A stretch of 64,000 nt of DNA from Lotus japonicus. Taxonomy: Eukaryota; Streptophyta; Magnoliopsida; Fabales; Fabaceae. The translations under genes were made by a program, and so were the position numbers. Where the stretch lies: the NCBI RefSeq assembly GCF_012489685.1, contig NC_080042.1, positions 32,493,158 through 32,557,157 of the forward strand, written 5' to 3'. Below the pieces are notes generated by a model that did no database searches, had not been told where the DNA came from, and saw only the letters and a list, made by a program, of their open reading frames with translations. Of this stretch, positions 17,153 to 61,029 are shown piece by piece. Position 1 is the stretch's first letter. Each line of letters starts with the position of its first letter.

Positions 17153-17473
17153 TGTTCCTTCATGAACATTGAGATGAGGTATAGTACCTAAGATGCAAGG
17201 AACGTGATGCGAGATTTCCATAGAAAAGTGATAGTGTAACCGCTTAGAGAGAGAAAGTAACTGAATTTCAAGCTTGTTATTGCACAAATGAGCTAAGACA
17301 CCATTACAATTGGTATCCCTCCCCTATTTATAGTTGGGGGAGTTGGGCCTAGTGCCTTTAAATCATCCTAATGGGCCAGTTGGGCCTTTTGGACAAAGGC
17401 CCAAATCCCTGATGTGACCCTTGCCTCAGTCCAGCGCCCCTGGACAAGTGACCCTGGGGTCTCCACAAGTCCA
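17153..17473 (-). repeat. Gypsy-1 3' LTR
   Basis: 321 bp, plus-strand ends TGTTCCTTCATGAAC and ACAAGTCCA, closely matching 37359-37656. A minus-strand TATA box (CTATAAATAG) lies near 17321-17331. It sits ~380 bp from the transporter start codon. Confidence 0.85.
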
Positions 17474-18872
17474 CAAGACACCGGGCTCGAAGCATGAGAG
17501 CTAAGTATGTCTTCAAACAAAAGAGATAAGGCGATGGGCGTAAGAAGCTAGCTAATGCCAATCATAAGGCATGGGAATAAAGAGCAATTGCCAACATGGC
17601 TTGGTAATTTTAAAGCTTTAAAAATTTAAAATTCTGAGCGCCTCGTCACGCTCCCCCGACGACTTGAGTCCACAAGCGAGCTTGCGGCGATGAGGCTGGA
17701 TTTGCTCGCCCCACCGTAGTCGCACACGTGCCTTGAACCGTAACTTTTTGACATGTGCCGAGCCTGCGCCTCACGTGGCGCTCTGAGGTGACATAAAGGT
17801 CAGCGAATCCAGGAAATCTCAACTTTCAAACGTCCCTTCGAATCGTTGTAAATCCTGACAGTTTGAATTCAAATCAATAAGCTTCAACCGTTGTGACTAG
17901 GGGTGTACAAGACCCGGCCCTACCCGCCAACCCGTCTCGGCCCAAGTCTTTAGGGCTGGGTTGAACCCGGCCCGATCATCAAAAGAGACCGGGTTTGGGT
18001 TGATCTTTGAGTTACACGACTTCGGGTGGGGTCGGGTTCGGGTTGACACTCAGGTCACCCGACCCGTCCCACATGTATATTTTATAAAATTTTAATTTAT
18101 TATAATAATTAAAATGTGATACATGGTGCTCAAATTTATCTTACCATGTGGATGAGATTAAAATGTTTAACATCTATCTTATAAATTAAATAAACGTTCA
18201 TCAAACTATGGACATTTTCATGCTCTAACAAGAGAAAATCATGTGTGTGTATTATGCACTTGTGAGACAAGTGAAGAAAACAAAATGAGTGACACGTGTA
18301 TATAGATCAAACAAAATGTAAACCTCTCAAGTGCAATAGATTATGAAAGAATTGGATCCTTTCAAGTTCTTTCTTCTAAAAAATAGTTCCAACTTATGAC
18401 TCTTTAAGTATGTTATTATCTTTAAATTTTACAATTAGTATAAAATAGTCTTAGACTAATTGTCCCTCGCGCCAACCCGGTCCCGTCCTACATAGACTCG
18501 TCCTAAATTGGAGCCGCATAATGTCGGGTTGCTTCGGGTCTAAGGACGGGTTAGGGCCTATGAATTGACCCGGTCAATATTTAGAGCCGGGTTAGGATTA
18601 ACCCAAACCCGTCCCAACCCATCCCTTGTACACCCCTAGTTGTGACCATTCATTTATTGTGCTGCATTCGTTTCCCGAAATCCGCGCCACACTCCTTTAA
18701 GTGATCATCTCACCTCTGCCATGATGAGGCACGACTTCCCAACCGTTGCTTACCCCAACTTTTAAAACCCCCTTCCCTTACTCATTCACCTTTTCCGGAA
18801 TTCCCAAAATCTTTTGAAATTGACAAACTAGCACCCCCTTTCTTTCTCATTCTTATCCTTCCTCTCAGCAAG
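17474..18872 (+). other. Gypsy-1 spacer between LTR and antisense ORF, with hAT insertion
   Basis: Homologous to 42172-42809 in gypsy-2. It contains the hAT element at 17898-18638. About 110 bp before the antisense ORF's ATG both copies share ACTTTTAAA followed by a C-rich run, a possible TATA-like element for that ORF. Confidence 0.5.
17898..18638. mobile_element. Non-autonomous hAT element (MITE), 741 bp
   Basis: Perfect terminal inverted repeats TAGGGGTGTACAAG / CTTGTACACCCCTA are flanked by identical 8-bp duplications GTTGTGAC (17890-17897 and 18639-18646). The subterminal parts are rich in ACCCGNCCC-type repeats. No coding capacity. Confidence 0.93.
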
Positions 18873-20565
18873 ATGACTTCCCAACGCCGCACCAAAAGAT
18901 CCTCTCGATCCCGCAGCGCCGCTCCCGCATCTCCTCCTATGGTTAACCCTTCCCCCCCCTGGGATTTCCTTTTTTGGAAAATGAAAAGAACGCTTTCTGG
19001 CATCGAATCTTCGCCACCTTGCCCCGTCCACAACTCAAGAGCCCACTCAGGAGGCCATCTGCCAACCTTCTGAGCAATCCACCGATAAGTACATTGCCGA
19101 GTCGGCCCGCCAGGCCGGTGGAATTTTTCGCGAGAAGTCCTTCGAGGATATCCTCATCACCGGCCGGGGCTTGGAGGTCCGTTGTCCCTGGCAGCACCGC
19201 ACGATCGAGCAAGGCGTGGAGCAACCCCACTTTTTTTACGTTTATGAGTACTTCTTTCTTGACCTGGGGAACAAACTACCCTTCTCCCCTTTCCTCTGCC
19301 AGGTCATGAGGGAAATCAATGTCGCCCCAAGCCAACTTCACTTGAACGCTTGGGCCTTCATTCGGTGCTTTGAGATTCTCTGTGACGCCGTCGGTCTCGA
19401 AGCAAAAACCTCCCACTTCTTCTACTTCTACGGCGTGGAGCCGAAATCTCTGAAGACTCCAACCCCTGGGTGTGTCTCCCTGAAATCTCGTACGGGTCGG
19501 CAGCGCCTCTACCCTTACAAGAGCAACGTCAAGAAGGGACCTGGGCGCCGGTACTTCCGCATACTCGTACATCCCTCCTCTCCTGAAGCTTTCACCCGTC
19601 GGAACGGGACTGCTCTTTTCCCCTTCTATTGGACTGAGAGTCCTCGCGATGTCCTGGCGCCGTCCGACACATCACTGAGTGATGAAGATAAAGCCATCCT
19701 TGGCTTTTTCGCTGGGCTTCCCATCCTTGAGTGTTCACAACTGCTTGAAGCTGTCCGCAAAAACACCCTCCGCTCCTTTCTAGGAGGGTTGAACTTTAAT
19801 GAAGTCGCGCTCAGGCGCACCCTAGCCGCCGACTCGCTTGAGTTTCGTCCCACTTTTAATACTAACGGGATGAAAAGGAAACGTGTTGTCGCGGATGCTG
19901 ATGCCGAGGTCGCCGCTTCCCCTCTAAAGAAACGGACCAGAAAATCTGGTACAGCCCCTCCTGAAACGACCGTGGCGGCCACAAACGTCGTTGCTACGGG
20001 GTCTGGCGAGCCAACACCAGACTCCATCCCTGGCGAGCCCGTACCGGGTTCCATCCCTCCACCAGAGATGGGCAAAACGGCTCCGGTGTCCACCTGTGAG
20101 GCTGAGCAACCTTCCTCATCAAGAAAACACCAAAAATCCAAAAAGGTCGCCCCTGGCGTAGGCGGAAAATCAAGGGTAGCGACTTCCTCGCCTCCGAAGT
20201 CGAAAAAGAAAAAAGAGAAAACCAAGAGACTCAGGGCTGGCGAGACATATGCCCCTCGCCAAGACCTGGTGGGCGGAGAAAAGCTAAATCCTGCAGGCGA
20301 TGTGGAGCCCTTGCCCTTTCTTGAGAAAGTCGTCGCCGATCAGAATGTACTGAAGATATTCCCTCTCGTGCTCCTCAAACGGCCCTTTCTCCCGATCATT
20401 CATGTCATCAAACCGGGGCAAGCCCACCTAGGGCCTCCCCTGATCCCACCATGAGTCCCGGCAGTGGAGACCAAACCCCCATTGCCCTGCTTCTGCTTCA
20501 ACGTTCTTTCCCTGCCGCTGGCCATCCGATTATTAACGAGCAGATGTGCCCTTCTTCAAGTCAAT
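18873..20565 (+). pseudogene. Gypsy-1 antisense ORF, N-terminal part: Transposase_28-like domain and basic patch
   Basis: Encoded opposite to gag. It starts ATGACTTCCCAACGCCGC, a Ser/Arg-rich N-terminus shared with gypsy-2 (42810). A frameshift lies near 18990-19030. From ~19040 a long open frame runs to TGA at 20452. Its core (LPFSPFLCQVMREINVAPSQ, WAFIRCFEILCDAVGL, HFFYFYGVEPKSL, SNVKKGPGRRYF) matches the plant 'putative gypsy type transposon' family (PF04195 pattern, from memory). A KRKR...LKKRTRK basic patch suggests nuclear import. Additional antisense ORFs are known in Tat elements; their function is unknown. The frame is then cut by the insertion at 20566 and resumes at 28535. Confidence 0.75.
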
Positions 20566-20659
20566 TGTAACATCCCACCAACCAGGTAACGACCTCATAG
20601 GAAATGCGAAACCCTAGAAAGTCGGAATAGGAAAATACGCGCTAACAATCTAACTATAC

Positions 20660-20672
20660 TATATAATATATA

Positions 20673-20725
<53 letters not shown>

Positions 20726-20745
20726 TGTGTGTGTGTGTCTGTGTG
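20660..20745. repeat. (TA)n/(TG)n microsatellite
   Basis: A run of TA dinucleotides passes into about 27 TG units with two TC interruptions. Confidence 0.95.
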
Positions 20746-26359: not shown

Positions 26360-28534
26360 GTAACGAACGATTTAATGCCTTGATTAGCCTATCTTGACCC
26401 AAGCATAATCAATGATGCAGAGGGAGCTATCTCAGACACACGCGATCCTCTATTGGTAAAGGTTAAAGGTAAGGGGGGTCATACAAGACCTTGTCTTGGT
26501 ACACAACTCATAAGTTAAACGTTATTACGGCAGAAAGCATATTATTATTTGCTTATGTGTTATTGGATGCATGATTGGATGTTGTGCTTGAAGAATGAAT
26601 ATTGGATGAAATATTGTGCTGAATTGCTGTGATTGTGTCTCATGCTTGAAGTGATGCACAGTAGAAAAGGATGACAGTACACTATGGGATATAGTGGTGC
26701 TTAGGATTATGAGCCTAAATGGCATGGTATCAGGATTGTCTCTGATACGTTGAAGCATCTGAGGCAGTGGGAAGAGGGAAAAGATAATCCCCGATTTAAT
26801 GAGTTATCGATACTTGCTTTTGGAAATCGACCTACCTATAACACCTTAGGATTACCCTATGATAGTTAGAGTAAACAATTAAATAATGATAATAGAATAG
26901 GCAAGTGAGCCCTTTTTCTCTAAGCGATTTAAAAAGTACATAACCATTAAACAGCGGATTAGAACTCCCGCTTGTATTCCTAAAACTACTTGATCTTGTC
27001 AAAGATCCCACCTCTAAAATAATTTTGGTGCACTTACTCTAAGTAAGGCAGCAGATGCTTGTGTCTAATTTATTAGAAACTTAATGGAAGTATAAGGGGG
27101 AGATGATTGATACTTGAAAATACACTTAAGGAGAAATAAGGAGTAGGAAAGTACTGTCACTACCACTAAGAGAGTGGGAATACAGAGACGCCAAAGGTGG
27201 TCATGTTCAGAGATGAATTGACCCGGGATTTACGCGACGACCCTACCTCTCCATCAGCTACCGCCAGGGTCCCGGAAAGGCCGGCCTGATGTGATGTAAC
27301 AAGGACCCCATAGTCGTGTACTTCTGTCTGTGAGCTACTGAGCGATCATTGTCCGGTAAAGAGTGGACTGTAAGGAGTATCCATGTTCCCGAGACGACTT
27401 TCCGAAGATAACGAAGCAATAGCTTGGGGCCCTTAAAACATACTCATCACATGATAAAGGAAAATAAATTAAAAAGGTTGGCGATGAACTCACCATTTCC
27501 TACGAAGTAGTGAGAGAAGTCAATTCGAAGGACGGAGATATAAGGAAGAATTAACCACATTGCATTACTACATGTGTTTGCTAACATGTTTGTATTTAAT
27601 GATATGTTGGCTTATGTTTTAACGCTTATCTTATCTGATGTGTATTATTGTGCAAGTTGCGTATGACTCACCCTTGCACTTAATTTTATAAAAGCAGATA
27701 GCAGGTGTGACAATGAGCTTCCCTCCAGTCCTTGCGATCCACGCTGATTTCCCGTCCCGTGCTGGCTAGCATGTTGACCCAGTTACCGGATACTGCTTTT
27801 ATCAGGGACTCACGATTTTATGGTGCAGGGATCCAGGAGCAGGACACATCGGTTTCCCAGTGACACTCCCTATGGTGTTCTCATTCTATCTGCCGACCCA
27901 TGCTCAGCACGTTGGTCCGCAGAGTCCAAGCAGTCCACAGGTGCCATACCCACAGGCAGGCGAGCCTATGGAGACCGGAGAGCCTATCCCAGCAGTACCA
28001 GTCACCGTGGTGAGCCCACAGGGATCCCCAGATCAGAGAGTTCTGCAGACCCAGGAGTCTATGGGATCTCCTCCACCCCGGAGGAACTTGTCTTGCTTTC
28101 GGGTCACGGCCCGCAAGCGAGTGAGATCCCCTAGATTCTCCCGAGATGCCAGGATTTACCGTCACAGATTTCGGAGAGGCGAGGCGTCCGGAGTCAGAGA
28201 GTCAGAGCAGAGTCCGACAGCAGAGCCAAGGTCAGTGCCAGCAGCCAGCGGGGGAGTTAGTGAGGAGGATTCAGAGGAGGAAGATCCGAGGGGATGAAGC
28301 CATATGGTCCGAGTTTCTGATGATGATGATGATCTATGTTTCCTTTCTGTATTTTGATTACCCATACCAGACTATGTGCTTGAGGGCGCTATGTCCTCTT
28401 TATGTGTTGTCTTTTTATTTGTAGACTTATGCGGTGGATCTGCCCACCAACTATGCATGTTATGTATGATCCGTGTGGTTTATATCGTTATTCTCCGTAG
28501 TCTTAGGTTAGGAGGTAGGGAGGGGGACGCCACA

Positions 28535-29345
28535 TCAGCGGCCCTCCCCTGTCGACTTCATGTTATCTGACTCGTTCTTCGCCAATATGAGAAGAACCGA
28601 GGATCCTGATCTTGACGGTGTGGCGCGAGAAGCCATCTCAAGCCTTTTGCATGCGGGGTGTCTTTTCACCAAGCTGTTACAGGACTTGGCCACAACCGCT
28701 AAAGTTGAAGAGCTTCGCCAAAGGGCTGAGGGTTATGGCCACGCTACACTTAAAGCGCATGGCGAGCGTGACAAGTTGCTGACTCAGGTAGCAGCTCAAG
28801 TGACAAAATTGAACTATTTGGGTAACGAGATTAGTTATCGCGAGGATGACTTGTCCGCTGTTGAAGGTAGAGCGGAGGAACTGGAGGACGAGCGGGACGG
28901 TTTGCAGCAGGAACTAAGAGCAAAGGTCGAGGCGATCGCCGCGGGTAGGGCTGCTTGCCTCGTAAAGGACAAAGAGATTGCGTTCCTTCATAGTGAGTTG
29001 GGGTCGGCGAACGAATCCCTCGCCGAGGTGAGATCTGAATTGGAAGTAAATGCCAAAGCTATTGCGGATTCGGAACACCGTACGGATTCTGAGGCCAAGA
29101 CTCTCCGGGAAAGGTTGGCGGCCAAGGCTGCTGCTGAGGTCGTGGAAGAGCGTGGTCGCGGCTTCTTCCTCGCCAGAGCTCAAGTTCAATACATTTATGA
29201 GGGGATTGACCTTAGCGGGACGGGAGCTTTCAAGAAGGTCACTCCCCATGGATTGGTCGGCCCGAACAACCCCCTAGGCTTCAATGCTGCATATTTCGCG
29301 GCTGCTGAAAATGCAAGAGAAACAGAAGATGTTAATGTAATGTGA
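28535..29345 (+). pseudogene. Gypsy-1 antisense ORF, C-terminal coiled-coil part
   Basis: Open from the insertion boundary to TGA at 29343. It begins with a segment shared with gypsy-2 (MLSDSFFANMR, DLDGVAREAISSLLHAGCLF), continues as a long Glu/Lys/Ala/Leu-rich helix typical of a coiled coil (about residues 50-200), and ends with a conserved block (QVQYIYEGIDLSGTGAFKKV). It is the downstream half of the frame at 18873-20565; together they would be ~830 codons. The coiled coil suggests self-association, inferred from composition only. Confidence 0.7.
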
Positions 29346-30256
29346 ATATTTTGTACTGATTTTTCCTTACCCTTTTTTCCTTCTCCTTTTTTTTGAAAAT
29401 ATATCGCTCGACATTATTTAGTAAAAATTTGCTGCAATTTCGTTTGTTTATTTCTTTCTTCGTTCGCGCCCTCGTCCCCTTCGGGCTTTGCATTTTGTGC
29501 TCGTGTAGCGATTTTGAATGTGTGCTATCGAAACTAGGACTTTAGCTCAACCTGGGCCTGAGGCTTTCTCCACGCACCAATATTTCTCGTAAGAGCAGGT
29601 GCGACCTCGCCGGTTTTATCCTTGCGAGGGCTTACGATTGCTAGGGACCCAATGGCCATATAGGTTTACCCAGACTTATGCCTAGTTTTTTTTCTCGCCC
29701 ATATTTTGGGGAGGTCTCGTTTGCCCATATTTTGGGGAGACTTTTTGGGATTGACTGCCCGCCCTTGAGCAAGGAGCCTATCCGCACACATCGCCAACGA
29801 GAGGTCAGTGATTCGCGCTGGATTTTCTGGAGCAATCCCCGGACATCAAGGTCGTGTTGGGATTGCCACCTTCAGGGAATTTTTCCCACTGGGCGAACGT
29901 GACATGTTAGTTGAATTGTTATCTGGGTAGCAGCGATTCGCGTCGGACTTTCCCGGAGCGATCCCCAGACATCAAGATCGTGTTGGGATCGCCACCTTCG
30001 GGGAATTTTTCCCACCGAGCGACTATCGTATAGTAGTCCAGCTAGGAGTATTACTTGAGAATATCCTTTTGTATTTGATTTTGTAAAAGTTTTACATAGG
30101 AGGGATGCCTCATTAAAAAACTCCCGTGGTGGAGAAAAAGAGTGCATCTTTATTTTTGGTCTTTAATTTTTGTTTTGTTCCGGTGTCCTCGTTCTTGCTT
30201 CCTGTGCCACGTCCTCAGCCTTGCTTTCCACGCGCTTCTGCTCCCAGCCACTCGGG
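29346..30256. other. Gypsy-1 non-coding spacer between the two convergent ORFs
   Basis: Lies between the 3' ends of the antisense ORF and the gag-pro ORF. It contains repeated CCCATATTTTGGGGAG motifs near 29698-29745 and the 125-bp tandem repeats. A matching spacer is at 45241-46085 in gypsy-2. Confidence 0.6.
29811..30040. repeat. Two 125-bp tandem repeats, gypsy-1 spacer
   Basis: Units start at 29811 and 29936 and share GGGATCGCCACCTTC and GGGAATTTTTCCCAC. The same two-unit array with the same 125-bp period is at 45681-45912 in gypsy-2. Confidence 0.85.
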
Positions 30257-31302
30257 TCAAAGTATCATCCCCATCACCACATCTTTCGAGCCAAACGTGC
30301 TCGCTAGCCACTCATTGTTATTTCTGAGCTGGCTTCCTTCCATGCCCGCCTCGTGGTGGTGAGGAACTTTTCCCATCTTGCCCTTCTGCCTGTCGTGCTT
30401 GGACATCTCTGGCTTAAAAACTACCGCACCCACAGGCTTCCAATATTTCGACTCTCCTTTTGCTTTTCCCCGGCGACGACTCACCGGTTTCCTTCTCCTT
30501 GCCCTCTTTTTGTCCTTAGACCACTCGCGCGCCTCATCACCTTTTTTCTCGCCATCACCCTGCTGGGCGATGCACCGGTCCATTTCTTGAATCTTTATTC
30601 CCTTTCCCTTTTCCCCATATCGCCCCGAACTCGAGAGACTCGATTTTCTGAACATCGGCAGTTCCCAGAATTCTGGGTCTTTTGAGCTCCAGCTGAAGAG
30701 GTCAAAGTTGTCCTCTACCAGCTTCTCTAAACGTCTCTCCTGACTAACCGTGAGCCTGGGCTCGATCGCCAACACCCCCTTGCTGAATTTGTACGCTTCT
30801 AAGTCTGCGACCACACCTGCCCAACGTTCCTCTGCACAAGCGTCCGTAAACTGCCCGTCCTTACCCGTCCTGCCATCTTCCCTGACCTTTCCTGCGCCGC
30901 TCCTTGTTCTTGCCATCCTCTTGTCAACCCCCTGCTTTGACCCCCCTTGCCTGCCTTGATTTCCTTGGATGATCTCAACTCATGACACCTGTGCCCCTCG
31001 CCAGCTCCTTTCTTTCCATACAAGCTGAGACAGTTGTTGTAGAATTCTCTCGCCCTCCTTTGGTCAACTACAATCTTTCCCACTTTTCCACTTATCAGCG
31101 GATATTTCACCGCTAGATGTGCCGTCGAGATTACTGCACAGAGGCGATTGAGTGTGTTCCTTCCAATGATGACATTATAGGATGCCACAACCTGCAATAC
31201 AAGATACCTTACACGGAGTAGCTTGGCGTTATTGTCGATTCCAAAGACTGTGTCCCGATCCACATATCTGCGTACCCAAACTTGCTCGCGTGAGAAGCCT
31301 AC
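30257..31302 (-). pseudogene. Gypsy-1 protease C-terminus and basic extension replacing the polymerase region
   Basis: Minus strand, following 35329-35606 across the Athila-like insertion. The first ~60 codons complete an aspartic protease (VFGIDNNAKLLRVRYLVLQ, NVIIGRNTLNRLCAVISTAH). A Lys/Arg-rich segment follows, then LAIEPRLTVSQERRLEKLVE and DNFDLFSWSSKD. In autonomous Tat elements reverse transcriptase would begin about here. Instead there is a basic region (RRRKPVSRRRGKAKGE, YWKPVGAVVFKPE) and a stop after VVMGMIL at 30257. Gypsy-2 has the same arrangement and end. At least one frameshift separates the protease part from the extension. Confidence 0.65.
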
Positions 31303-34015: not shown

Positions 34016-35328
34016 TGTTGGTAAATCCGCAAGTGTACGAAATCCACCCGGTTTTAAATATCGAACCACAGGGATTGTGAGTGAAAAGATTCGGTTCAAG
34101 CTTTGAGTTTGAAGGTTTGTTTTATTGAGGCAAACATATGACGAAGTAGTAATAAGGAAAAAGAAAATATAAATTCAGAAATGAAATAGAGAAGGAAAAG
34201 AAAGAGTGATTTACTTTGGGTTCTTGCTCAACTAATCAATTCAAGCACATCATTCTAAGCACATGTTCTCATGAATCTCTTCTTGATGATATAGCCTAGT
34301 TACTCACTTATTGATTCCTCACATAAGCAATTCTCTCATACTAAAAGCTAAGCCCAATTCCTTGTGTACTTAGTCATTTATATGAGGTTTTAGATCATGC
34401 AAATTCAGGCCATCAAACCCCAACCCTTCCTCTATTCCTAGTAGCAAGTATAGAAGGGGTAATCCCAAATCGGTTCCCTAATCTATAACAAACTTCCGTT
34501 CTGATTATAGAAAAGCATAAAGCAAGCATGCATACAAGCTTAGATTGATGTTCAGAAAATGGGATTCAAGGGAAGAAGGAGAACATGTGGGAAAGAACTT
34601 AAGATTATAACTCAAATATAAAAAGTCTTACAAAGAAATCCAAAGCAAAAGAAGAGAGATTAGCCAAGCATGGCAAGAACCTGAATTACAAGCTTAGAAG
34701 CCCTCTCACACCCTCCTAGATGCTCCTCTACCTCTGAGTTTATGTAAAAATAAAAGTAGTATCCAAGATTACCAAAGAAAATGACTAAAATCCTATTTAT
34801 AGGCAAATTACACGAGACTGGGCTGTTCTGGGCACTCAGGCGCCAATTCAGAGCGCCTGAGCGCCAATTGCATGCCTAAAACATGCTTTCTGGAGCTAAT
34901 TGGCGCCTAGGCACCCATTCCCAGCGCCTAGGCGCTTAAGCTCGCCTGAAAAGGACTTTTTGGCTTCTGAAACTCCTCTTTTCAATCCTCTTTAAGTTCT
35001 TCATCAATTCCATGCTTCTTGGCCTTCTTTCTCCTTCAGTTTCTGCTCTCCAAACCTAACCAACAAGTCAAGGAAGATTCTAGAAGCTCCAAGAGCTCAT
35101 TAGCACAAGAGGTCCTTCATAAAACACAACAAAACCATGCAAGTCCTAAACTTTACTTAAAATGCAAGAAAACTACCTATAAAACTACTAAATTACCAAA
35201 ACAAAATAAAGACTAAAGAAAAGAATAAAAATGCATGAGAATGCATGAAACACTACATGAGACACAAGAAAAAGACTCAAAACCTACAAGGAAAAACCAT
35301 AAAAACATCATATAAACCCGGGTCATCA
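34016..35328 (-). repeat. Athila-like element 5' LTR
   Basis: 1313 bp, near-identical to 31303-32621. Confidence 0.9.
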
Positions 35329-37213
35329 CCTACCAACGTTCCTGTATAGGGTATCAGGTCTTTGTCCGTCAATCCTAATTGATCAAAAGCATCCCCATAG
35401 ATGATGTCAGCGGAGCTCCCTTGGTCCAAAAGAACCCGCCGCACGTTGAAGCTGTTGATCCTTATCATCACAACCACCGGATCGTCTTTGTGCGTCCTGA
35501 TCCCTTCAAAATCGGCCGACGATATCAGAATATCTGGATGCTGGAAACTGAATGGCGTTTCGTACTGTTGCACTGATGTCACTGCTCTCACGTGCCTTTG
35601 CCTCACCGACGCTGTATCTCCGCCCCCGCGGAATCCACCCGCAATAGTATTTATCGTACCAACTGGCGGCTCAAGGTCTTTATTAAAGGTTTCTCCGCCC
35701 CCTTCTTCCTTGTGGCCAGTGTTTCCTTATTGTCAGCGGTTGGCGTGCGCCGGCGGTTGTCTCGCCTGCGGTCATCCTGCTGACGGCCCCCTCTGTACTG
35801 GTTCCCTTGCTGCCGCTCTCCATTCCACCGATCGCCACGGTCATTCATCTGCAATCGTCCCGCTCGAAAGAGTCTCTCAATCTCATTCTTCAGGGTAAAG
35901 AAATCTCCCGTGTCGTGGCAGGCCGAGCGGTGGTACTCGCACCACTTTGTTTTATCCAACGCCACTCGGGGCGGGTCGGCCTTTTTCTCGCCTTTCTCAA
36001 CTGCGTGAGTTGCCTTGACCTCTCGAAGCAACTCCTTCAGATGGGCATTAAGACTCTTTTCTGACTCCTTCTGACTCCTCTTGCCAGCGAGGGTCAGCTT
36101 GATGCCACGGTCTGCGGCGCTCAAAGTTTTCTCTCCTCGGATACAATGGCTCCTTCGCAGTCTTTTCTCTTGTCTTTACCTTCCTGTCTCGCTTTTTGCT
36201 GCTCTCTCCCCTTTCCTTAGTCCGTTTTTCTTCCGGCGAAGCGTCCCCCAGCTCGCCGTCTTTCCCCTTTTTCGCGCGCCTTTGCTTGAAAGCATCATCT
36301 TCCTCGTCCAGGATGTATTTGTTTGCTCGCGCCCGGATCTCCGCCATGGACCGAGCCGGTTTGCGGCTCAATTTGCTGTTCAGCTTCCCCGGTTGCAACC
36401 CGTTCTTGAAGGCACGCGCATAGGCGTGCGACTCTGACTCCTCAATTTTGACTGATGCTGCGCTGAATCGTTTTACATACTGCTTCAGAGTCTTTTCTCA
36501 GATTGGCGAACGTTGTAGAGATCCTCGATCGTCACCTGCTTGGTTTTGCTGGCGGAAAACTGGACGAGAAATTTTGATGAGAAGTCACGGAAATTAGTGA
36601 TGGATCCCCGGAGTAGCGTGGTAAACCAGGCCATGGCTGTGCCTTTGAACGTAGCTGGTAACATCCTGCACTTCACAGCGTCCGAAGCCGCACTGATCAC
36701 CATTTTTGTGTTGAAGTATAACAGGTGCTCTTTGGGATCAGCTTTCCCGCTGTATGTCTCAAGTACAATATTCTTCATGTTATCTGGTATCGCAACCTCC
36801 CTTACTGCCGCTGAGAACGGTTCGAATTCAGCCACAACCTCCGCCTCCGCCTCGCGTTCCCCTTCATCCTACTCTAGCTGTTCTTGCAAGTAATCGTTCC
36901 TCTGTCGTATATCATCAACACTACGGATCAAGCGCCTCCAGTCTTGGCCAGAGATCGGTGCCTGAGGTGCCTGATTGTCCTCTCCCGAAGCTCCGGGTGA
37001 GTGCGTTGGTGAGCTCTGTTGCTTCGGTGAAGTCGGCGGAGAAGGTAACAGAGGCGTTGGAGAAGGAGGTGGAGGTGGTGGTGGTCGTGGAGAAGTTAAC
37101 TGATCGGTTTCTTCACGACGAACTTGCTCGCGTCGCGGTCTGCCTCTTACGCGACGTGGAGGCGAGCCGCGCCGCTCCTGATCTTCGTCGCGTCGTCGAC
37201 GACGTGTTTCCAT
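35329..37213 (-). pseudogene. Gypsy-1 gag and protease N-terminus, broken
   Basis: Likely start METRRRRRDEDQERR at 37213 (minus), followed by a Pro/Ser-rich segment. Around 36835-36485 is a Retrotrans_gag domain (MKNIVLETYSGKADPKEHLL, CRMLPATFKGTAMAWF, FRDFSSKFLVQFSASKTKQ). A knuckle-like block WCEYHRSACHDTGDFFTLK lies near 35990-35930, with Phe where related elements usually have the last Cys. The protease active site LLDQGSSADIIYGDAF is near 35440. A stop after EQLE (about 36869) and several frameshifts inactivate it. Gag forms particles; the protease cuts Gag. The protease frame is cut at 35329 by the Athila-like insertion and continues at 31302. Confidence 0.8.
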
Positions 37214-37339: not shown

Positions 37340-37356
37340 CCCCACAGACGGCGCCA
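37340..37356 (-). other. Gypsy-1 primer binding site
   Basis: TGGCGCCGTCTGTGGGG on the minus strand, 2 nt from the 5' LTR, of the type used by Tat/Ogre-like elements. Confidence 0.8.
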
Positions 37357-37358
37357 AA

Positions 37359-37656
37359 TGTTCCTTCATGAACATTGAGATGAGATATAGTACCTAAGAT
37401 GCAAGGAACGTGATGCGAGATTTCTAGAGAGAAATGAGTGTGTAACCGCTTAGAGAGAGAAAGTAACTGAATTTCAATCTTGTTATTGCACAAATGAGCT
37501 AAGACCCCTTTACAATTGGTATCCCTGCCCTATTTATAGTTGGGGGAGTTGGGCCTAACGCCTTTAAATCATCCTAATGTGCCTTTGGGATAAAGGCCCA
37601 AATCCTTGGTGTGACCCTTGCCTCAGTCCAGCGCCCCTAGGGTCTCGCCCAGTCCA
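37359..37656 (-). repeat. Gypsy-1 5' LTR
   Basis: 298 bp, TGTTCCTTCATGAAC ... CGCCCAGTCCA, with a minus-strand TATA box CTATAAATAG at 37530-37539. It is about 93-95% like 17153-17473 by eye outside small indels. Confidence 0.85.
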
Positions 37657-41851: not shown

Positions 41852-42171
41852 TGTTCTATCCAAGAACATAGAGATGAGGTACGGTACCCATAGTGAGAGG
41901 ATCGTGATGTGAGAATCTATAGAGAGTTTAGAGCGTAACCACTTAGAGAGAGAAAGTAACTGAATTTCAAGCTTTTTATTTCTCAAATGAGTTAAGAGTC
42001 CCTTACAATTGGTAACCGTCCCCTATTTATAGATTCGGGGGTTGGGCTTGGCACCCCTAATTTCTCCTAATGGGCCAGTTGGGCCTCCCGGGAGAAGGCC
42101 CAATTTCCTGGCTTGTACGTTGCCCCGGGCTGGCGCGCCTGGGTGAGGGACCCTAGGGTTCGCCCAGTCCA
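41852..42171 (-). repeat. Gypsy-2 3' LTR
   Basis: 320 bp, TGTTCTATCCAAGAAC ... CGCCCAGTCCA, with a minus-strand TATA box (CTATAAATAG) near 42024-42033. Confidence 0.9.
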
Positions 42172-42809: not shown

Positions 42810-45240
42810 ATGACTTCCCCACGCCGTACTAAAAAATCTTCTCGATCCCGAAGCACGGCTCCTGTACCTCCGCCTCCAGTTGTCCTTCCTCCCTTGGAGG
42901 ACTTCCCTTTGGCGAGGGGGAAATCACCGCCTTCTGGCGCCGGGTGTTTACCACCCTTCTAGAGTCCGCGGATAAAACCCCCGTTCAAAAGGCCATTTGT
43001 CAAACCTCTGAATTGTCCTCCGATGAGTCTGTCACTAAAATGGCCCGCCAGGCCGGTGGGCTTTGTTACGAGAAATCTCTCGAAGACGTTCTTGTCACCG
43101 GGAGGTGCCCAACGATTCGCCGACCCTGGCAGCACCGTGTGGTTGACCATGGTGTGGAGAGACACCACTTCTTTTATGTCTACGAATATTTATTCCTCGA
43201 CCTGGGAATCAAACTTCCCTTCTCCCCCTTCCTTCGCCAAGTTATGAGGGAAATCAATGTGGCCCCCTGCCAACTCCATCAGAACGCCTGGTCCTTCATT
43301 CGTTGTTTTGAGATTCTCTGCGATGCCATTGGCCTTGAACCAAAAACCGCCCACTTCTTTTACTTCTACGCCGTGGAACCGAAGTCTTTAAAAACTAAAA
43401 CCCCAAGGTGGGTTTCCCTGAAATTACGCACATGCCGCCAGCGTCTTCACCCCTACAAGAGCAACGTCAAGATGGGGCCTGGGCGCCGGTACTTCTGCAT
43501 AACCGTGCATCCCACTTATCCAGAAATTATCACCCTTCGAGACGGGATTGCCCTGTTTCCCTTCTACTGGACCAAGAGCCCCCGCGTTGTTCCGCTGCCA
43601 TCAGATGAGTTGCTGAGTGATGAAGATAAAATTGTCCTTAGCTTTCTTGTTGGGCTTCCGGTCCTTGAGTGCTCACAATTGCTCGAGGCCGCTCGCAAGA
43701 ACACCCTTGGTTCATTCCTGGGAGGAATGAATTTCACTAAAGTCGAACTGGAGTGTGCCCTAGCTCCCAAAACTTTCGAGTTTCCTCCCATCTTCAATAC
43801 TAGCAGAAGTAAGAGAAAACGCGCCGCTGTGGATGCTGACACCGAGACCACCGTCCCTTCCCCAAAGAAACGGGTACGAGGGTCCACATCGGTTGAGCCT
43901 GCGCCAGGATCCACAGTCAACACTGCCTATCCTGAGGCCGGCATGGCAACGCCACACATTATTGCTCCTGTGTCCAGTGAGCCAACGCCTGACGCCGTCA
44001 TTCCTCCTGAGACTGACGAGTCGGCGCCGGGCTCTACCAACAACTCCGCTCTCCCTTCCCTAGTGGAGGAATCTCACAAATCCGAAGAGGCTGATCTTGG
44101 CACGGACGGAGGAACTAGAGCCGCTATCCCCCTGCTAAAAAAGAAAAAGAAGAAATTCAAGGGGGTCAAAACCGACAACACATCCGTTCCTCTCCATGGC
44201 ATGGTGGGCGAGGACGAACCAAACCCTAAGGGCGAGCTGGAACCCTCGCCCCTTCTCAAGGAGACTCCTATTGGTCAAGGTGCCTCCGAGAACGCCGCTT
44301 CTGATCCCACTCAAACAACATCCCCTTCTGACCATACATCCCAACAAGCTGAGGTAAGGTCACCCAAGGCCTCCCCAATCCACGAAATGGTTCGTGACGA
44401 TGAGGATCAAGCTCCTACCGTCACACATTCTCCTCGCCCCTGTTCTCCTGCCGTCAGCCATCTGAACGCCGACGAGAAAGAGAGTTCTCCTCCAAACTAG
44501 CAACCTACTCCTGTCACCTTTATGCTGTCTGATCCCTTCTTTGGTAACATGAGAGGAGCTGAGAATTCTGACCTTGATGGCGTGGCAGAAGAAGCCATCT
44601 CGAGTCTCCTGTGCGCGGGGTGCCTCTTCGCCCAGTTATCCCAGGATTCGGCCTCTGCCGCTGAAGTTGAAGAGCTCCGTCAGAAAGGTTGAGAGTTATC
44701 GCCTTGCTACACTCAAGGCGTACAGAGAGCGTGACAAGTTGTTGCCTCAGATGACGACCCAAATAACTAAGCTGAACAACCTGGGTATCGAGATGAGCGG
44801 TCTCAAGGCCGACTTATTGCCAAAGATAAAGAAATTGCTTGAGTAGGGCAGCCTGTATTGCCAAAGATAAAGAAATTGCGTGTCTGCGCAGCGAGTTGGC
44901 GTTGTCGAACGAGTCTCTCGCCGAGGTGAGGAATCAACTTGCAGCAAAAACCAAAGCCGTTGCGGAGATGGAAAATCGGCGGCCTCCGAAGCCAAAACCC
45001 TTCGAGCGAGGTTGGAGGTCGAAGCTGTTGCTGAGGCTGTGGACGGGTGCGACCACGGTTTCTTCCTTTCTAAAGCCCAGGTCCAGTACCTTTATGAGGG
45101 AATAGATCTCAGCGGAATGGGAGCCTTCAAGAAGATCACCCCGAGGGTTTGGTCGGCCCTGATGATCCTCCAGGCTTCGACGTTGTCTACTTTGCGGCTG
45201 CTGAAAACGCAGGGAAAGCGGAAAACGTTAATATAATTTA
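42810..45240 (+). pseudogene. Gypsy-2 antisense ORF: Transposase_28-like domain, basic patch, coiled coil
   Basis: Starts ATG at 42810 with a Ser/Arg/Pro-rich N-terminus and shifts frame near 42920. It is then open to TAG at 44498-44500. The central domain (LPFSPFLRQVMREINVAPCQ, SFIRCFEILCDAIGLEPKT, HFFYFYAVEPKSL, VKMGPGRRYF, GLPVLECSQLLEAARKNTLG) matches the PF04195-type pattern and gypsy-1. KRKRAAVDAD and SPKKRVRG give a bipartite basic patch. After the TAG (aligned to CAG in gypsy-1) the coiled-coil part continues with frameshifts and stops to ~45236, ending with VQYLYEGIDLSGMGAFKKI. It is antisense to gag; function unknown, nuclear location inferred. Confidence 0.75.
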
Positions 45241-46085
45241 AATACTTTGTATTGATTTTCTCTTACCCCTTTTGTAACTAATATTGCTTTATGTTAATGA
45301 ACATAATTTCGTTGCAGTTTTGCTTGTCTTATTTTATTCATCGCCCTGCCATATTTCCTCCATGTGTTCGTTTTACGCCTTTGGGTTTAGACTTCGTGTA
45401 GTGATTTTGAGTGTGTGCCAAAGAAAACTAGGACTTTTGCTCAGTTTTGAACCGAGGCTTTGTTCACACCATATTTCCCGTAAGATCAGGTGTGGCCTTG
45501 ATAGTTTTGTCTCGGAAAGGACTTATGACTGCTCGAGACCCAATGGCCATATAGGTTGCCCGAGACTTAGCCTAGCTTTGGGTTCTCACCCATATTTCGG
45601 GGAGGTTTTACTCGCCTATATTTCAGGGAGGCTTTTGGGATAAGTAACTTATCCGCACACATCGCCAACGAGTGATCAACGGTTCGCACTGGACTTTCCG
45701 GAGCGATCCCCAAACATCAATGTCGTGTTCAGATCGCCACCTTCAGGGAATTTTTCCCACCAGGCGACCGTGATATTTTGGTTGAGTTGCTAATCGTGTA
45801 GCAACGGTTCGCGTTGGACTTTCCGGAGCGATCCCCAGACATCAAGTTCGTGTTGGGATCGCCACCTTCAGAGAATTTTTCCCATCGGGCGACCGTGATA
45901 ATTTAGTCAAGCTAGGAGTATTGCTGGGAATATCCTTTTTGTATTTGATTTGTAAAAAGTTTTTACATTCGAGGGATGCCTCATTAAAAAACTCATGTAG
46001 TGGAGAAAAAGAGTGCATCTTTATTTTTGACCTAGTTCTTCAATTCTCTCGCCGCGTCCTTGCTCCTGTCTTTGGCCCCCCCAGA
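45241..46085. other. Gypsy-2 non-coding spacer
   Basis: Counterpart of 29346-30256. It holds CCCATATTTCGGGGAGG-type motifs and the 125-bp tandem repeats. No coding sequence recognised. Confidence 0.6.
45681..45912. repeat. Two 125-bp tandem repeats, gypsy-2 spacer
   Basis: Units start GGTTCGC at 45681 and 45806 and share CCGGAGCGATCCCCA and GGAATTTTTCCCA, with the same period as 29811-30040. Confidence 0.85.
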
Positions 46086-51308: not shown

Positions 51309-51329
51309 TCAACAATTTCTAAGATTCCT

Positions 51330-55767: not shown

Positions 55768-55821
55768 TGCAATATTGAATTCAAGTGAAAACGAGATGAG
55801 AGGACTGATATGCTTTAACCG

Positions 55822-55830: not shown

Positions 55831-56030
55831 AACTCAATTCAGTCTACAGAAGTTAATGCTGAAGCAGTTTCTCGAGGATTTTTTATTGGTAACAGATGTT
55901 TACCTTTAACTCCTTGGCCGGTGGTAAACGTTTCACTCCTTCATTTAATCTTCTGCATCTACATTAATTAAAAATGTTTTCACTAATTTTTTTCTTTTCT
56001 TTTCTCCATCTTTTTAAACTTAGACCTTTG

Positions 56031-57005: not shown

Positions 57006-57054
57006 CTCTGTAGGTTTTAAGAATTGTTCATCAAAATACTTGGTTTTGTCATCA

Positions 57055-57070
57055 TCAAAAAGGGGGAGAT
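57055..57070 (+). other. SIRE polypurine tract
   Basis: A run AAAAAGGGGGAGA immediately precedes the 3' LTR at 57071 and would prime plus-strand synthesis. Confidence 0.85.
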
Positions 57071-58302
57071 TGTAAGATCAAGTTTTGATCTAGTAGTACA
57101 ACTCTATGTTTTGATGATTACATGTTAACTATTGTGTATGAACAATTATGGTACTCTAACGTTGTTTTCTGAGTGTTCTAATGACAGGCCATGACTCTGG
57201 TTTTATTTCACATAATTCAGAAGCACAATGCTCAAAGAGTAACCTCCGCAACGCTTTCGCACTTACTATGTTCAATCTGAACAGTAGATTAAGCTTCAGA
57301 TGATCAGAAGATTATAAAGCTCTGATATGGATTCAGCTCACTAGAAGCTCTGAAGGATCAGAAGCTCTAAAGAATCAGAAGCTCTGAAGGATCCGAAGCT
57401 CTAAAGGTCCAGAAGCTCTGAACGTCAAGAAGCTAAGTAGTTAAGATTCTGAAGTCCAAGAGTAAGCTGGCTCTGAAGACCAAGTACTTCTTCTCAGAGT
57501 CCAGACCAGAAGGTACAAAGGTCAGAGGATCCAAGCTTCCTTCTGACTCTGATCACCAAGCTTCACAAGTTCCAATATGAAGCATCACTCTGATCAGAAG
57601 TCAACTAGGATAAAGGTCATGTCACTATCCAAAGTACAAAAGCAATTGTACCATTCCTGACGACCTTACCTAACTTATTCAGCCAGAACAGAACCTGGAA
57701 AACCCATATCTGCCCTCCAACGGTTGCATTCCATGCAAACTTCCAAACCTAATTCCTTGGAGTATATAAAGAGGCTGAAGATGAAAGATGCCGCTCGAAG
57801 AAACTTTGTTGAAGCTCACGCGAAATTCAAATATTCTCTCAAATCAATCTTTCTTCACATTGTACTAATTGTGTTTACTATTAGCTTTCTAAAAAGCATT
57901 TCTGTGTAAACCCAAACCTTCAAACAATTGTTTGATTTTCCTTAAGGAGACCAAGGTTGGTCGGATCCTTGAGAAGACTAACAGAGTGAATCTTAGTGAT
58001 AGCTAAGTCAGTGTATTGTTTGTCACTTTGCAGGTAGCAAGTGCAGTTGTAACAAACTCTGATTAGTGGATTGCCTTCATTCTAAGAAGGAAGAAATCAC
58101 CTTAACGGGTGGACTGGATTAGCTTGAGGGATTTATCAAGTGAACCAGGATAAAATCATTTGTGTGCTTTCCTTAACTCTTATCTTAGCACTTTTATCTA
58201 TGGTGTTTGAAGAGATTTGTTTAAATCTCAAGTGAGTCGAGTTTTAGATTTAAAACGCTATTCAAACCTCGCCCCCCCTTTCTATCGTTTTTCATACCTT
58301 CA
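57071..58302 (+). repeat. SIRE 3' LTR
   Basis: 1232 bp, closely matching 46151-47356, with the same end TTTTTCATACCTTCA. Confidence 0.92.
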
Positions 58303-58874
58303 GTCATTGCGGGGTTGATCCCTTCGCCAGCTCGCCCCACAGTAGCGCGGGACTTCCCCTACCTTACCTTTCTTCTTGCGGCGCCTAGCTGCCCTAGGTT
58401 TAACAATTGCCACCCCTACTGGTTTCCAATATCCTGCTTTTCCTTTTCCCTTACCCGTGCGGCGGCACCCGGGCTCCTTTTCCCACCTTTGGCTTTTCTC
58501 GAGGTCGCTCAAGTGCCTTGTGACCACTTCGTTCGCCGCCACCGCGCTGAAAACTAATCTGATCCGTTCTTCACACCACTGTCCCGTTTTCCTTTCTTTC
58601 TTCTTGGCCCGTCCCAAAGAGAGTCGGCTTCCTGAATCTTGGCAGCCCCCAAAGGGTCACATCCTTCTGACTCCAACTAAAGAGGTCAAAATTGTCCTCT
58701 ACTAGCTTTTCCAGGCGCGTTTCTTGATTGGTCGTGAGCCTGGGCTCGATTGCGAGCACGCCTCTGCTGACCTTCTATCACGTTCTCCCAGCGCTCCTCT
58801 GCATGTGCATCCGTGAATTGTTCGTCCCTTCCTGTCCTGTCATCTGGCCTTCTCTGACCTTGGCTGTTCCTCAA
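58303..58874 (-). pseudogene. Gypsy-2 basic extension replacing the polymerase region, broken
   Basis: Minus strand downstream of protease. LAIEPRLTTNQETRLEKLVE and DNFDLFSWSQKD correspond to the segment just before reverse transcriptase in autonomous relatives. A Lys/Arg-rich region follows (GKGKGKAGYWKPVGVAIVKP, ARRRKKKGKVGE), aligned with gypsy-1. Stops and frame changes occur near 58571 and 58690. The frame is interrupted by the SIRE insertion at 58303 and finishes at 46086. Confidence 0.65.
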
Positions 58875-59061: not shown

Positions 59062-59766
59062 TCAACCGCTATTTTTCCCACCTTTCTCGCAGATTAGAGG
59101 ATACTTCACCGCCAGGTGAGCCGTCGAAATCACCGCGCAAAGACGGTTGAGCGTGTTCCGTCCAATAATGACATTGTATGATGCCACGACCTGCAATACC
59201 AAATACCTTACACGCAGAAGCTTGGCATCTTCATCAACACCAAAAACCGTGTCTAAATCCAGGTAGCCACGTACCCAGACCTGCTCTCCTGAAAAACCTA
59301 CCAGAGTCCCAATGTATGGCATCAAGTCGTTCTCCGTCAAACCCAACTGATCGAACGCATCGCCGTAGATAATGTCTGCAGAACTTTCCTGGTCCAAAAG
59401 AACTCTTCGCACATTAAAGATGTTGATTCTTACCATTACTACCACAGGATCGTCTTTATGTGTCTTGATCCCCTCAAAATCTATCGATGATATCACGATA
59501 TCTGGGCGACAGCGCTTGAAGCTTTCCTTCCTAGGGTATAACGGTTCCTTCGCAGCCCTCTCTCCTGACTTTATCTTCTTATCTCGCTGCTTACCACCTT
59601 CTCCTTTTACTTTACTTTGTTTGCCTTCCGACGATGCATCCCTCTGATCTCCCTCCTTTTCCATTTTTGCACGTTTCCTTTTGAAAGCATCATCCTCCTC
59701 GTCCAGAATGTAAGTGATTGCCCTCGCGCGGATCTCTGCCATCGACGGAGCCGTCTTACGGCTCAA
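59062..59766 (-). pseudogene. Gypsy-2 gag C-terminus and aspartic protease
   Basis: 234 open codons: SMAEIRARAITYILDEEDDA, a Lys/Glu-rich linker, then the protease DIVISSIDFEGIKTHKDDPV, RRVLLDQESSADIIYGDAFD, FSGEQVWVRGYLDLDTVFGV, VVASYNVIIGRNTLNRLCAV. The active site reads D-Q-E-S where gypsy-1 has D-Q-G-S, a likely inactivating change. The cysteine/histidine knuckle present in gypsy-1 is missing here between the Lys-rich linker and the protease (internal deletion). Confidence 0.8.
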
Positions 59767-59787
59767 CTTACTGTTCAGCTTTCCTGG

Positions 59788-60570
59788 CTACAGCCCGTTC
59801 TTGAAAGCACGCGCGCAGGCATGTGGTTCAGACTCCTCAATTTTAACAGATGCCGCGTTGAATCGTTTCACGTACTGCTTGGTTTTGCTCGCGGAGAACT
59901 GGACGAGGAACTTCGATGAGAAGTCTCGAAAAATTGTGATGGATCCCCGAGGTAATGTCGTAAACCAAGCCATTGCCGTACCTTTGAATGTTGATGGGAA
60001 CATCCTGCATTTCACCGTGTCGGAAGTGGCGCTAATTACCATTTTCGTGTTGAAATAAAGTAGGTGTTCCTTGGGATCGGCTTTGCCACTATACGTTTCT
60101 AGAACGATGTTCTTCATGTTGTCCGGAATAGCCACCTCCCTCACCGCTGCTGAGAACGGCTCAAACTCCGCCACGGCTTCGGCTTCACGCTCTTCGTCGT
60201 CTTGTTGCTCGACACGATAATACTCTAACTGCTCCTGTAAGTAATCGTTCCGCTGCCGTATGTAATCAACATTACGGATCAGACGCCTCCAATCTCGACC
60301 GGTGATCAGAGCCTGTGGCGGCGGTGTTCCTTCCCCTGAGGCTCATGGCGAGTGTGTTGGTGACCTCTGTTGCTCCGGTGAGGACGGCGGAGAAGGCAAA
60401 GAAGGTGTTGGAGAAGGAGGAGGTGGAGGTGGTGGAGGTGGCGGAGGAGTCAATTGCTCAGATTCGTCGCGTAGGACCTGCTCGCGTCGTGGCCTGAACC
60501 TCACGCGACGCGGTGGTGAACCGCTCTGCCTCTCCTGCTCTCCGTTGCGTCTTCGACAACGCGTCTCCAT
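59788..60570 (-). pseudogene. Gypsy-2 gag N-terminus and core
   Basis: Start METRCRRRNGEQERQ at 60570, Pro-rich run, then TGA near 60345 (gypsy-1 has Gly here). The core 60174-59788 has AEFEPFSAAVREVAIPDNMK, ETYSGKADPKEHLLYFNTK, MAWFTTLPRGSITIFRDFSS. It is open where gypsy-1 carries a stop (after EQLE), so the two copies are broken at different places. Confidence 0.8.
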
Positions 60571-60695
60571 CAGATTTCACAAGCGAACCAAGAATTAAAA
60601 CCAAAAATCCAAAAAGCGAAGAGAATCACGCAAAAAGTCGAACTTCTCTCCACCAAATCACAATCCACGTAGTCCGGGAATCGAAGTCTACCGTT

Positions 60696-60712
60696 CCCCA
60701 CAGACGGCTCCA
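60696..60712 (-). other. Gypsy-2 primer binding site, one substitution
   Basis: TGGAGCCGTCTGTGGGG on the minus strand, 2 nt from the 5' LTR; gypsy-1 has TGGCGCC. The substitution may have arisen after insertion. Confidence 0.75.
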
Positions 60713-60714
60713 AA

Positions 60715-61029
60715 TGTTCTATCCAAGAACATAGAGATGAGGTACGGTACCCATAGCAAAAGGATCATGATGTGAGAATCTAGAGAGAGTTTAGAGCGTA
60801 ACCGCTGAGAAAGTAACTGAATTTCAAGCTTTTTATTTCTCAAATGAGCTAAGAGTCCCTTACAATCGGTAACCGTCCCATATTTATAGATTCGGGGGTT
60901 GGGCTTGGCACCCCTAATTTCTCCTAATGGGCCAGTTGGGCCTCCCGGGAGAAGGCCTAATTTCCTGGCTTGTACGTCGCCCCGGGCTAGCGCTCCTGGG
61001 CGAGGGACCCTAGGGTCTCGCCCAGTCCA
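60715..61029 (-). repeat. Gypsy-2 5' LTR
   Basis: 315 bp, ~95% like 41852-42171 by eye, with minus-strand TATA near 60880-60889. Confidence 0.9.

What the first reader, a model, noticed from the sequence alone, without database searches (positions are those of the whole stretch)
17153..61029. Two independent gypsy copies lacking polymerase but sharing a complete alternative gene layout
Gypsy-1 and gypsy-2 (about 7.75 and 7.0 kb without insertions) both go LTR, primer site, gag, protease, basic extension, spacer with 125-bp repeats, antisense ORF, LTR. Neither shows reverse transcriptase, RNase H or integrase motifs. Different LTR 5' sequences and independent insertion mean the RT-less design moved at least twice, so it is a trans-mobilised lineage that still kept long reading frames. 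That is unusual for non-autonomous elements, which usually lose coding.
Basis: partly seen in the sequence, partly recalled or inferred. Interest (0 to 1): 0.8.

Follow-up and report, generated by a model that had tools for sequence, protein, structure and literature searches.

The report
Split retrotransposon: capsid half lacking polymerase
Two old jumping genes in a Lotus-like genome lack the copying enzymes but belong to a large family that kept its capsid genes under selection, and one of them shares its end sequences with a second family that has the copying enzymes but no capsid, as if one element had been split into two halves that rely on each other.

Summary
Both elements read LTR, primer site, gag, protease, basic tail, two short repeats, antisense ORF, LTR, with no RT, RNase H or integrase. 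The layout is a Retand-lineage Ty3/gypsy element minus pol; the antisense ORF carries that lineage's Transposase_28 domain. The pol-less design is a real lineage: 151 listed tail hits genome-wide (capped), 0 of 29 inspected copies with RT within 1.5 kb, one clade in the protease tree (support 100), dN/dS well below 1 in capsid, protease and antisense ORF. The two window copies themselves are broken. New here is a partner: elements whose LTRs are 91-95% identical to gypsy-2-type LTRs carry protease-RT-RNase H but lack the capsid domain. Of 26 elements sampled by gypsy-2-type LTR, 8 are capsid-plus/pol-less, 6 pol-plus/capsid-less, 2 capsid-less without visible RT, 1 capsid only, 9 unclassified, 0 with both. 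The halves fall in different protease clades yet share one LTR pool. This resembles maize Cinful (POL) and Zeon (GAG), here probably in Lotus japonicus. Mutual dependence is inferred, not shown; a complete related family also exists and could be the helper. gypsy-1's LTR partner was not found because the search did not complete.

The parts
60715..61029 (-). gypsy-2 5' LTR (315 bp), TSD CCGGT at 61030-61034
60696..60714 (-). gypsy-2 primer site TTTGGAGCCGTCTGTGGGG
59513..60570 (-). gypsy-2 gag, capsid domain PF03732, stop at 59788, zinc-knuckle region lost
59077..59499 (-). gypsy-2 protease, motif DQE instead of DQG
58658..58777 (-). gypsy-2 protease-to-RT connector, where pol homology ends
58303..58657 (-). 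gypsy-2 basic tail, first part; the rest (about 46086-46148) lies beyond the copia insertion
45677..45904 (+). gypsy-2 two 125-bp units
42833..45226 (+). gypsy-2 antisense ORF, PF04195 plus coiled-coil part, broken by a stop at 44498 and frame breaks
41852..42171 (-). gypsy-2 3' LTR, TSD CCGGT at 41847-41851
37359..37656 (-). gypsy-1 5' LTR
37340..37358 (-). gypsy-1 primer site TTTGGCGCCGTCTGTGGGG
35651..37213 (-). gypsy-1 gag, broken (stop at 36869 and frameshifts)
35328..35480 (-). gypsy-1 protease, N half
30976..31302 (-). gypsy-1 protease, C half, separated from the N half by the 4.0-kb insertion
30257..30811 (-). gypsy-1 connector and basic tail, inside one open frame 30257-30979
29806..30022 (+). 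gypsy-1 two 125-bp units
28512..29345 (+). gypsy-1 antisense ORF, coiled-coil part
18985..20454 (+). gypsy-1 antisense ORF, PF04195 part
17153..17465 (-). gypsy-1 3' LTR (outer end read by comparison, could be 17473)

Best explanation
gypsy-1 and gypsy-2 are decayed copies of one pol-less, capsid-bearing branch of the Retand lineage. Shown: the branch has gag-protease-basic tail plus an antisense Transposase_28 ORF and no pol, is multi-copy, forms one protease clade, and kept capsid and protease under purifying selection while pol-less. Shown: a second class that uses the same LTR pool (gypsy-2 type) carries protease-RT-RNase H (integrase and antisense ORF read in one element) but lacks the capsid domain. 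Inferred: the two classes cross-mobilise each other, capsid-class RNAs supplying particle protein and pol-class RNAs supplying enzymes, both recognised through shared LTR ends, primer site and leader. Inferred: the basic tail stands in for the lost Gag-Pol link. Inferred: the two coding halves come from different sublineages and reached one LTR/leader by recombination during reverse transcription.
For: No pol beside the tail in 0 of 29 other copies, four longer stretches and both window copies. One clade, support 100; shared tail and junction. w falls with dS: protease 0.50 to 0.21 to 0.13, capsid 0.60 to 0.095; antisense ORF 0.13-0.45 between gypsy-1 and gypsy-2. LTR-defined sample of 26: 8 capsid-plus/pol-less, 6 pol-plus/capsid-less, 0 with both. 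LTR identity between classes 91.2-94.7%, as high as within classes, while the protease tree separates them. 5 of 5 further pol-plus elements drawn by P0012 lack capsid.
Against: No expression or mobility data. 9 of the 26 LTR-defined elements could not be classified and 2 capsid-less ones showed no RT. Only 40 of 2732 LTR candidates were scored. RT w in the capsid-less class does not fall steadily with dS (0.38, 0.19, 0.47; 15 pairs), and 23 of 24 P0012-type matches contain stops. A complete family exists with the same primer site and LTR termini. No partner for the gypsy-1 LTR type was found; that search did not complete. The LTR tree has weak support inside the pool.
Confidence: 0.68

Rival explanations
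1. One-sided parasitism: the pol-less elements are trans-mobilised by the complete P0006-type Retand family, and the capsid-less elements are another set of parasites of the same family.
For: P0006-type elements are complete, numerous (55 matches, 55 of 11432 candidates scored) and mostly free of stops in the match. They share primer site, LTR start TGGACTGGGCGAG, LTR end and the stretch before the 3' LTR with pol-less copies, and are sister to the pol-less clade (support 84 and 88).
Against: Their LTR body is only 62-66% like the pol-less LTRs and 65-67% like the pol-plus capsid-less ones, against 91-95% between the two defective classes.
Confidence: 0.2
2. Merely deleted copies: separate deletions removed pol from ordinary elements.
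For: Both window copies are degenerate, and many tail copies carry stops.
Against: Shared junction and tail, a single clade, low w among pol-less copies, 0 of 29 tail copies with RT.
Confidence: 0.05
3. Fossil resemblance: both classes are dead, and their LTR similarity reflects one recent common source or gene conversion, not mutual mobilisation.
For: The six pol-less copies dated have LTR K2P 0.046-0.075, none near zero; capsid-less matches mostly contain stops.
Against: A common source conflicts with the protease tree. Both coding halves show w below 1, so both kept replicating from functional copies after they diverged.
Confidence: 0.07

Closest known systems
Maize Cinful (POL) / Zeon (GAG), RLG00001 (PMC8547701, passages read)
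   Same: GAG and POL in separate copies of one LTR family, described as approaching a mutualism; 25 maize LTR families reported with this pattern.
   Different: Here a legume; both halves keep a protease; the pol half keeps a zinc-knuckle region; the capsid half has a conserved basic tail; protease trees put the halves in different sublineages. Whether Zeon keeps a protease was not checked.
RLG_Quinta / RLG_Cereba of einkorn wheat (PMC11302176, passages and section 5 read)
   Same: Pol-less element that keeps GAG and adds a domain of unknown function; shared primer site and LTR termini with the partner.
   Different: Cereba is complete; here the closest LTR partner lacks capsid. Quinta encodes only GAG and DUF1; no protease or antisense ORF is described for it in the section read.
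Pol-less Athila families of Arabidopsis (PMC2410132, passages read)
   Same: Whole families without pol whose gag (and env) is under purifying selection; recombination among distant families.
   Different: Athila lineage, env-bearing or gag-only, not Retand with an antisense Transposase_28 ORF.
TR-GAG elements (PMC8704663, passages read)
   Same: Non-autonomous LTR elements that keep GAG and move in trans; one new insertion seen in Arabidopsis ddm1.
   Different: Single GAG ORF; here gag, protease, tail and antisense ORF.
Retand lineage (PMC11963269, abstract, Results and Discussion read)
   Same: Antisense TRP28 ORF and repeats between pol and 3' LTR; some clusters lack GAG (e.g. Zea mays 1 and 2, Medicago ruthenica 1 with 315-bp LTR in its Table 1).
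   Different: That survey groups elements by RT, so pol-less branches fall outside it; no pairing with a capsid-bearing half appears in the sections read.

Membership tests
Retand lineage (Ty3/gypsy) | antisense Transposase_28 (PF04195) ORF on the 3' LTR side | tested here: met
   PF04195 at 29.0 and 32.5 bits, cut-off 26.2; 53-55% identity to a Lotus japonicus PF04195 protein
Retand lineage (Ty3/gypsy) | placement by RT phylogeny | not testable with these tools
   the window copies have no RT; protease places them beside P0006-type relatives, which were not themselves typed by an RT tree here
Retand lineage (Ty3/gypsy) | tandem arrays of three or more repeats (about half of clusters) | tested here: not met
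   two 125-bp units in gypsy-1, gypsy-2, L039, L040 and L041; not a feature of all Retand clusters
Pol-less non-autonomous family with functional gag | no RT, RNase H or integrase | tested here: met
Pol-less non-autonomous family with functional gag | gag under purifying selection while pol-less | tested here: met
   capsid w 0.60, 0.32, 0.21, 0.095 with rising dS; protease 0.50, 0.21, 0.13
TR-GAG | single ORF encoding GAG | tested here: not met
   protease, tail and antisense ORF also present
Reciprocal GAG/POL split (Cinful/Zeon kind) | capsid and pol in separate copies of one LTR family | tested here: met
   8 capsid-plus/pol-less and 6 pol-plus/capsid-less among 26 elements chosen by gypsy-2-type LTR; LTRs 91-95% alike between classes
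Reciprocal GAG/POL split (Cinful/Zeon kind) | fewer than 1% of copies with both | tested here: inconclusive
   0 of 26, but 9 unclassified and the sample is too small for a 1% bound
Autonomous/non-autonomous partner criteria of PMC11302176 | same primer site and LTR termini, conserved second LTR half | tested here: met
   gypsy-2 against capsid-less pol-plus elements: whole LTR 91.7-94.6%, 85-89% from LTR into the start of gag, primer site read in L079 with one mismatch in gypsy-2. Against the complete P0006 family: primer site and termini met, second half 62-66%

The most novel reading that the evidence does not exclude
An obligate two-component retrotransposon: one class carries capsid and the other carries polymerase, drawn from different Retand sublineages and brought onto one LTR/leader pool by recombination, neither able to replicate alone, with the basic tail acting in the capsid class in place of the lost Gag-Pol link to bring polymerase into the particle.
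Probability: 0.35. Interest if true: 0.78.

Novelty: new variant of a known kind. Interest (0 to 1): 0.58.

Why it matters
Plant LTR families are usually classed by their RT, which hides pol-less branches. Here a pol-less branch is large, old and under selection, and one of its subgroups shares LTRs with a capsid-less branch. The question whether such elements are parasites or mutual partners thus becomes testable in what is probably a model legume, with two RNA classes that can be counted apart. It also bears on the unknown function of the antisense Transposase_28 ORF: it stayed under selection in elements without pol, so its role need not depend on being encoded beside pol.

Tried and rejected
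Tail as a decayed RT: profile comparison of 20 tails with 10 pol-bearing proteins gave probability 0.1; BLASTP to P0006 gave 34% over 94 residues, mostly connector; Pfam and PDB gave only chance-level hits. A protein search for the tail, limited to proteins of 0.55-1.75 times 650 aa, gave none of 224 candidates at E 0.01, so spread to other species is unknown. P0006 family as sole helper: kept as a rival. Copies chosen by the tail alone would bias the RT question, so a second sample was drawn by LTR. Whether the 125-bp duplication predates the gypsy-1/gypsy-2 split is unresolved, support 25. gypsy-2's exact place inside the pol-less clade is unresolved: with L040-L042 at support 72, outside them with low support. 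Species: contig C3 has the length (97,635,135) given for the contig of the Lotus japonicus protein P0001; other contigs differ by a few kb from lengths listed for Lotus proteins; no record name was seen. L021 and L039 are the same copy, so the 34 rows are 33 copies. L047, fetched as a complete-family piece, gave no antisense-ORF N-terminal match.
Full report
Setting. The window lies at C2:32493158-32557157 of a 554-Mb genome in 65 contigs. Contig C3 has exactly the length of the contig listed for a Lotus japonicus protein, so I take the species to be L. japonicus; no name was shown.

Observation. Self-comparison, sequence reading and alignment give two minus-strand LTR elements. gypsy-2 has a CCGGT target-site duplication; none was seen for gypsy-1. 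A gag piece of gypsy-2 carries PF03732, and the antisense ORF carries PF04195 Transposase_28 in both copies; the gypsy-1 gag pieces gave no Pfam hit but align to gag of relatives. The 25 pol-bearing relatives found with the gag-protease stretch (24 of 25 with PF00078 listed) match gag, protease and connector up to about DLFSWSxKD and do not match RT core, RNase H or integrase in either element. The window copies are broken by stops, frameshifts and nested elements, so 'kept long reading frames' holds for the family, not for these two copies.

Layout. [quoted passage not shown] The window layout is this layout with pol removed and a basic tail of about 130 residues in its place. The tail is conserved among copies (20 stop-free sequences), shows no relation to RT, and has no convincing Pfam or PDB match.

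A pol-less lineage. The tail gives 151 listed matches in the genome, with 150 of 1701 candidates scored, so this is a lower bound for matches; a few copies give two matches. Of the 29 other copies held with 1.5 kb on each side (L010-L038), 0 have RT, RNase H or integrase at E 1e-3, 28 have protease upstream and 25 have the antisense ORF downstream. As a control, 6 of 8 loci from the RT family search gave RT; the other two gave no match to any query. Four stretches of about 9 kb, chosen for long open frames, show gag, protease, tail and antisense ORF and no RT; two have both LTRs (7.68 and 7.73 kb, LTR identity 92.4% and 94.4%). In the protease tree the pol-less copies form one clade (support 100), with the complete P0006 family as sister (support 84; 88 in a second tree with a third pol-less subfamily). 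gypsy-1 and gypsy-2 fall in different subgroups (supports 93 and 72); the place of gypsy-2 inside the clade is unresolved. 26 of 34 rows (33 copies) keep the protease motif D-x-G without a stop; 2 rows have no data there.

Selection. Between gypsy-1 and gypsy-2 the in-frame w is 0.21 for the Transposase_28 part (bootstrap 0.14-0.30), 0.45 for the variable middle, 0.17 and 0.13 for the coiled-coil parts, 0.09 for gag piece 2, 0.02 for the protease C half and 0.33 for the tail. The tail's bootstrap interval (0.52-0.72) does not contain its point value, and resamples with saturated dS disturb some intervals, so that figure is unreliable. For gag piece 1, the protease N half and the connector dS was saturated and w not computable. 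dS is near or above 1, so the values are approximate. In the two other frames w is higher for each of the seven stretches that could be compared. Among copies from the tail search (30 tails, 25 proteases, gypsy-1 included among the tails), protease w falls from 0.50 (dS below 0.15, 95 pairs) to 0.21 (174 pairs) to 0.13 (dS 0.3-0.5, 31 pairs), and tail w from 0.48 to 0.43 to 0.39 (99, 260, 76 pairs). Capsid w in 13 capsid-bearing copies is 0.60, 0.32, 0.21 and 0.095 with rising dS (4, 16, 3 and 44 of 68 pairs). This is the pattern of elements copied from functional sources and then decaying. Since the clade is pol-less as far as sampled, the older divergence happened in the pol-less state.

Ages. 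LTR K2P distances are 0.067 (gypsy-1), 0.046 (gypsy-2) and 0.075, 0.055, 0.060, 0.048 for four other pol-less copies; two further pairs gave no 3' LTR in the fetched stretch. With 1.3e-8 per site per year (recalled, a rice value) this is about 1.8-2.9 million years. In one complete-family copy the two LTRs are identical over the 262 aligned bases.

The partner. To avoid choosing copies by the tail I used the gypsy-2 5' LTR plus primer site as probe (41 matches listed, 40 of 2732 candidates scored). Of 32 matches other than gypsy-2 that reach the primer site, 5 coincide in position with tail hits, one at 78% identity was left out, and 26 were inspected. Twenty were read at 1.5-3.9 kb from the LTR, with the stretch nearer the LTR also read for 11 of them; six were read from the LTR to about 3.9 kb. 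Result: 8 capsid-plus without RT (one with the tail; seven of a third type with no recognisable tail after the connector, six of the seven rejoining the same 3' spacer); 6 with RT and RNase H but no capsid; 2 capsid-less where RT was not seen; 1 with capsid only; 9 not classified (8 without any match, 1 with antisense ORF only); 0 with both. In the capsid-less elements the start of gag and a zinc-knuckle region remain and the capsid between them is gone. In the three LTR-to-RT stretches no match to the gypsy-2 capsid appeared even at E 10, while two complete-family controls gave 65-66% matches. The one element read further downstream has the C-terminal part of pol and the antisense ORF C-terminal part (L080).

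One LTR pool, two protease clades. LTRs of three pol-plus elements and the gypsy-2-type pol-less ones are 91.2-94.7% identical between classes, 91.6-93.7% within pol-plus and 91.2-95.5% within pol-less (L042 left out: its LTR is a different type, 74-77% to pol-plus). The LTR tree mixes the classes, with weak support inside the pool. The complete-family LTR is 65-67% and gypsy-1 LTRs are 73-76% like the pol-plus ones. The protease tree groups the capsid-less elements with P0011/P0012, and the pol-less elements beside P0006. Different coding ancestry with one LTR and leader (85-89% from the LTR into the start of gag) is what template switching between co-packaged RNAs would give.

Mechanism, shown and inferred. 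Shown: complementary gene content, shared LTR and leader, conserved primer site, w below 1 for capsid in one class and for RT, RNase H and protease in the other (medians 0.33, 0.25, 0.35; RT does not fall steadily with dS: 0.38, 0.19, 0.47). Inferred: mutual supply of capsid and pol in trans; the tail as substitute for the Gag-Pol link; exchange of LTR and leader by recombination. Against: 23 of 24 P0012-type matches contain stops, so that half looks old as well, and a complete family sharing termini and primer site exists that could be the helper.

Known systems. Maize Cinful (polyprotein) and Zeon (GAG) are described as such a pair, and 25 maize LTR families have GAG and POL in separate copies (PMC8547701, passages). 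Pol-less families with selected gag are known in Athila (PMC2410132, passages); Quinta keeps GAG plus an unknown domain and is paired with complete Cereba (PMC11302176, passages and section 5); a TR-GAG has been seen to move (PMC8704663, passages). PMC7264820 was seen as abstract and outline only, PMC3701649 as passages. Searches (listings, apart from the papers named) showed no report of a split Retand pair in a legume; most subscription papers are missing from that library. Hence: a new variant of a known kind.

Limits. Counts are lower bounds because the genome search scores only the best candidates. The gypsy-1 LTR search did not complete. dN/dS values come from simple pairwise counts. There are no expression or mobility data.

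Noticed in passing
window 31303-35328: Element inserted in the gypsy-1 protease: two 1.3-kb direct repeats 97% alike around a 1.4-kb middle, target-site duplication CCTAC; its coding content was not searched.
   Followed up: partly
window 46151-58302: Copia-type element with long LTRs nested in the gypsy-2 tail, target-site duplication GTCAT, with a further repeat copy at 56028-57010.
   Followed up: partly
window about 20.4-28.5 kb and 2640-6372: About 8 kb inserted in the gypsy-1 antisense ORF contains stretches 85-89% identical to 2640-6372; what kind of element this is was not worked out.
   Followed up: no
L057, L061, L066, L068, L073, L074 (L071 in part): A third pol-less, capsid-bearing subfamily with gypsy-2-type LTR whose connector is followed by a different, unrecognised tail before the same 3' spacer.
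   Followed up: partly
L041 1916-2173 and 7828-8087: A 260-bp repeat, 96% identical, not in the expected LTR positions of this pol-less copy; unexplained.
   Followed up: no
L080 1297-2156 (reverse-complement coordinates): A capsid-less element also carries the antisense ORF C-terminal part (37-40% identity), so this ORF occurs in both halves.
   Followed up: partly
LTR and spacer of gypsy-1 and gypsy-2: Non-coding LTR and spacer are about 74-75% identical between the two elements although synonymous sites are near saturation, hinting at constraint or exchange in the non-coding parts.
   Followed up: no
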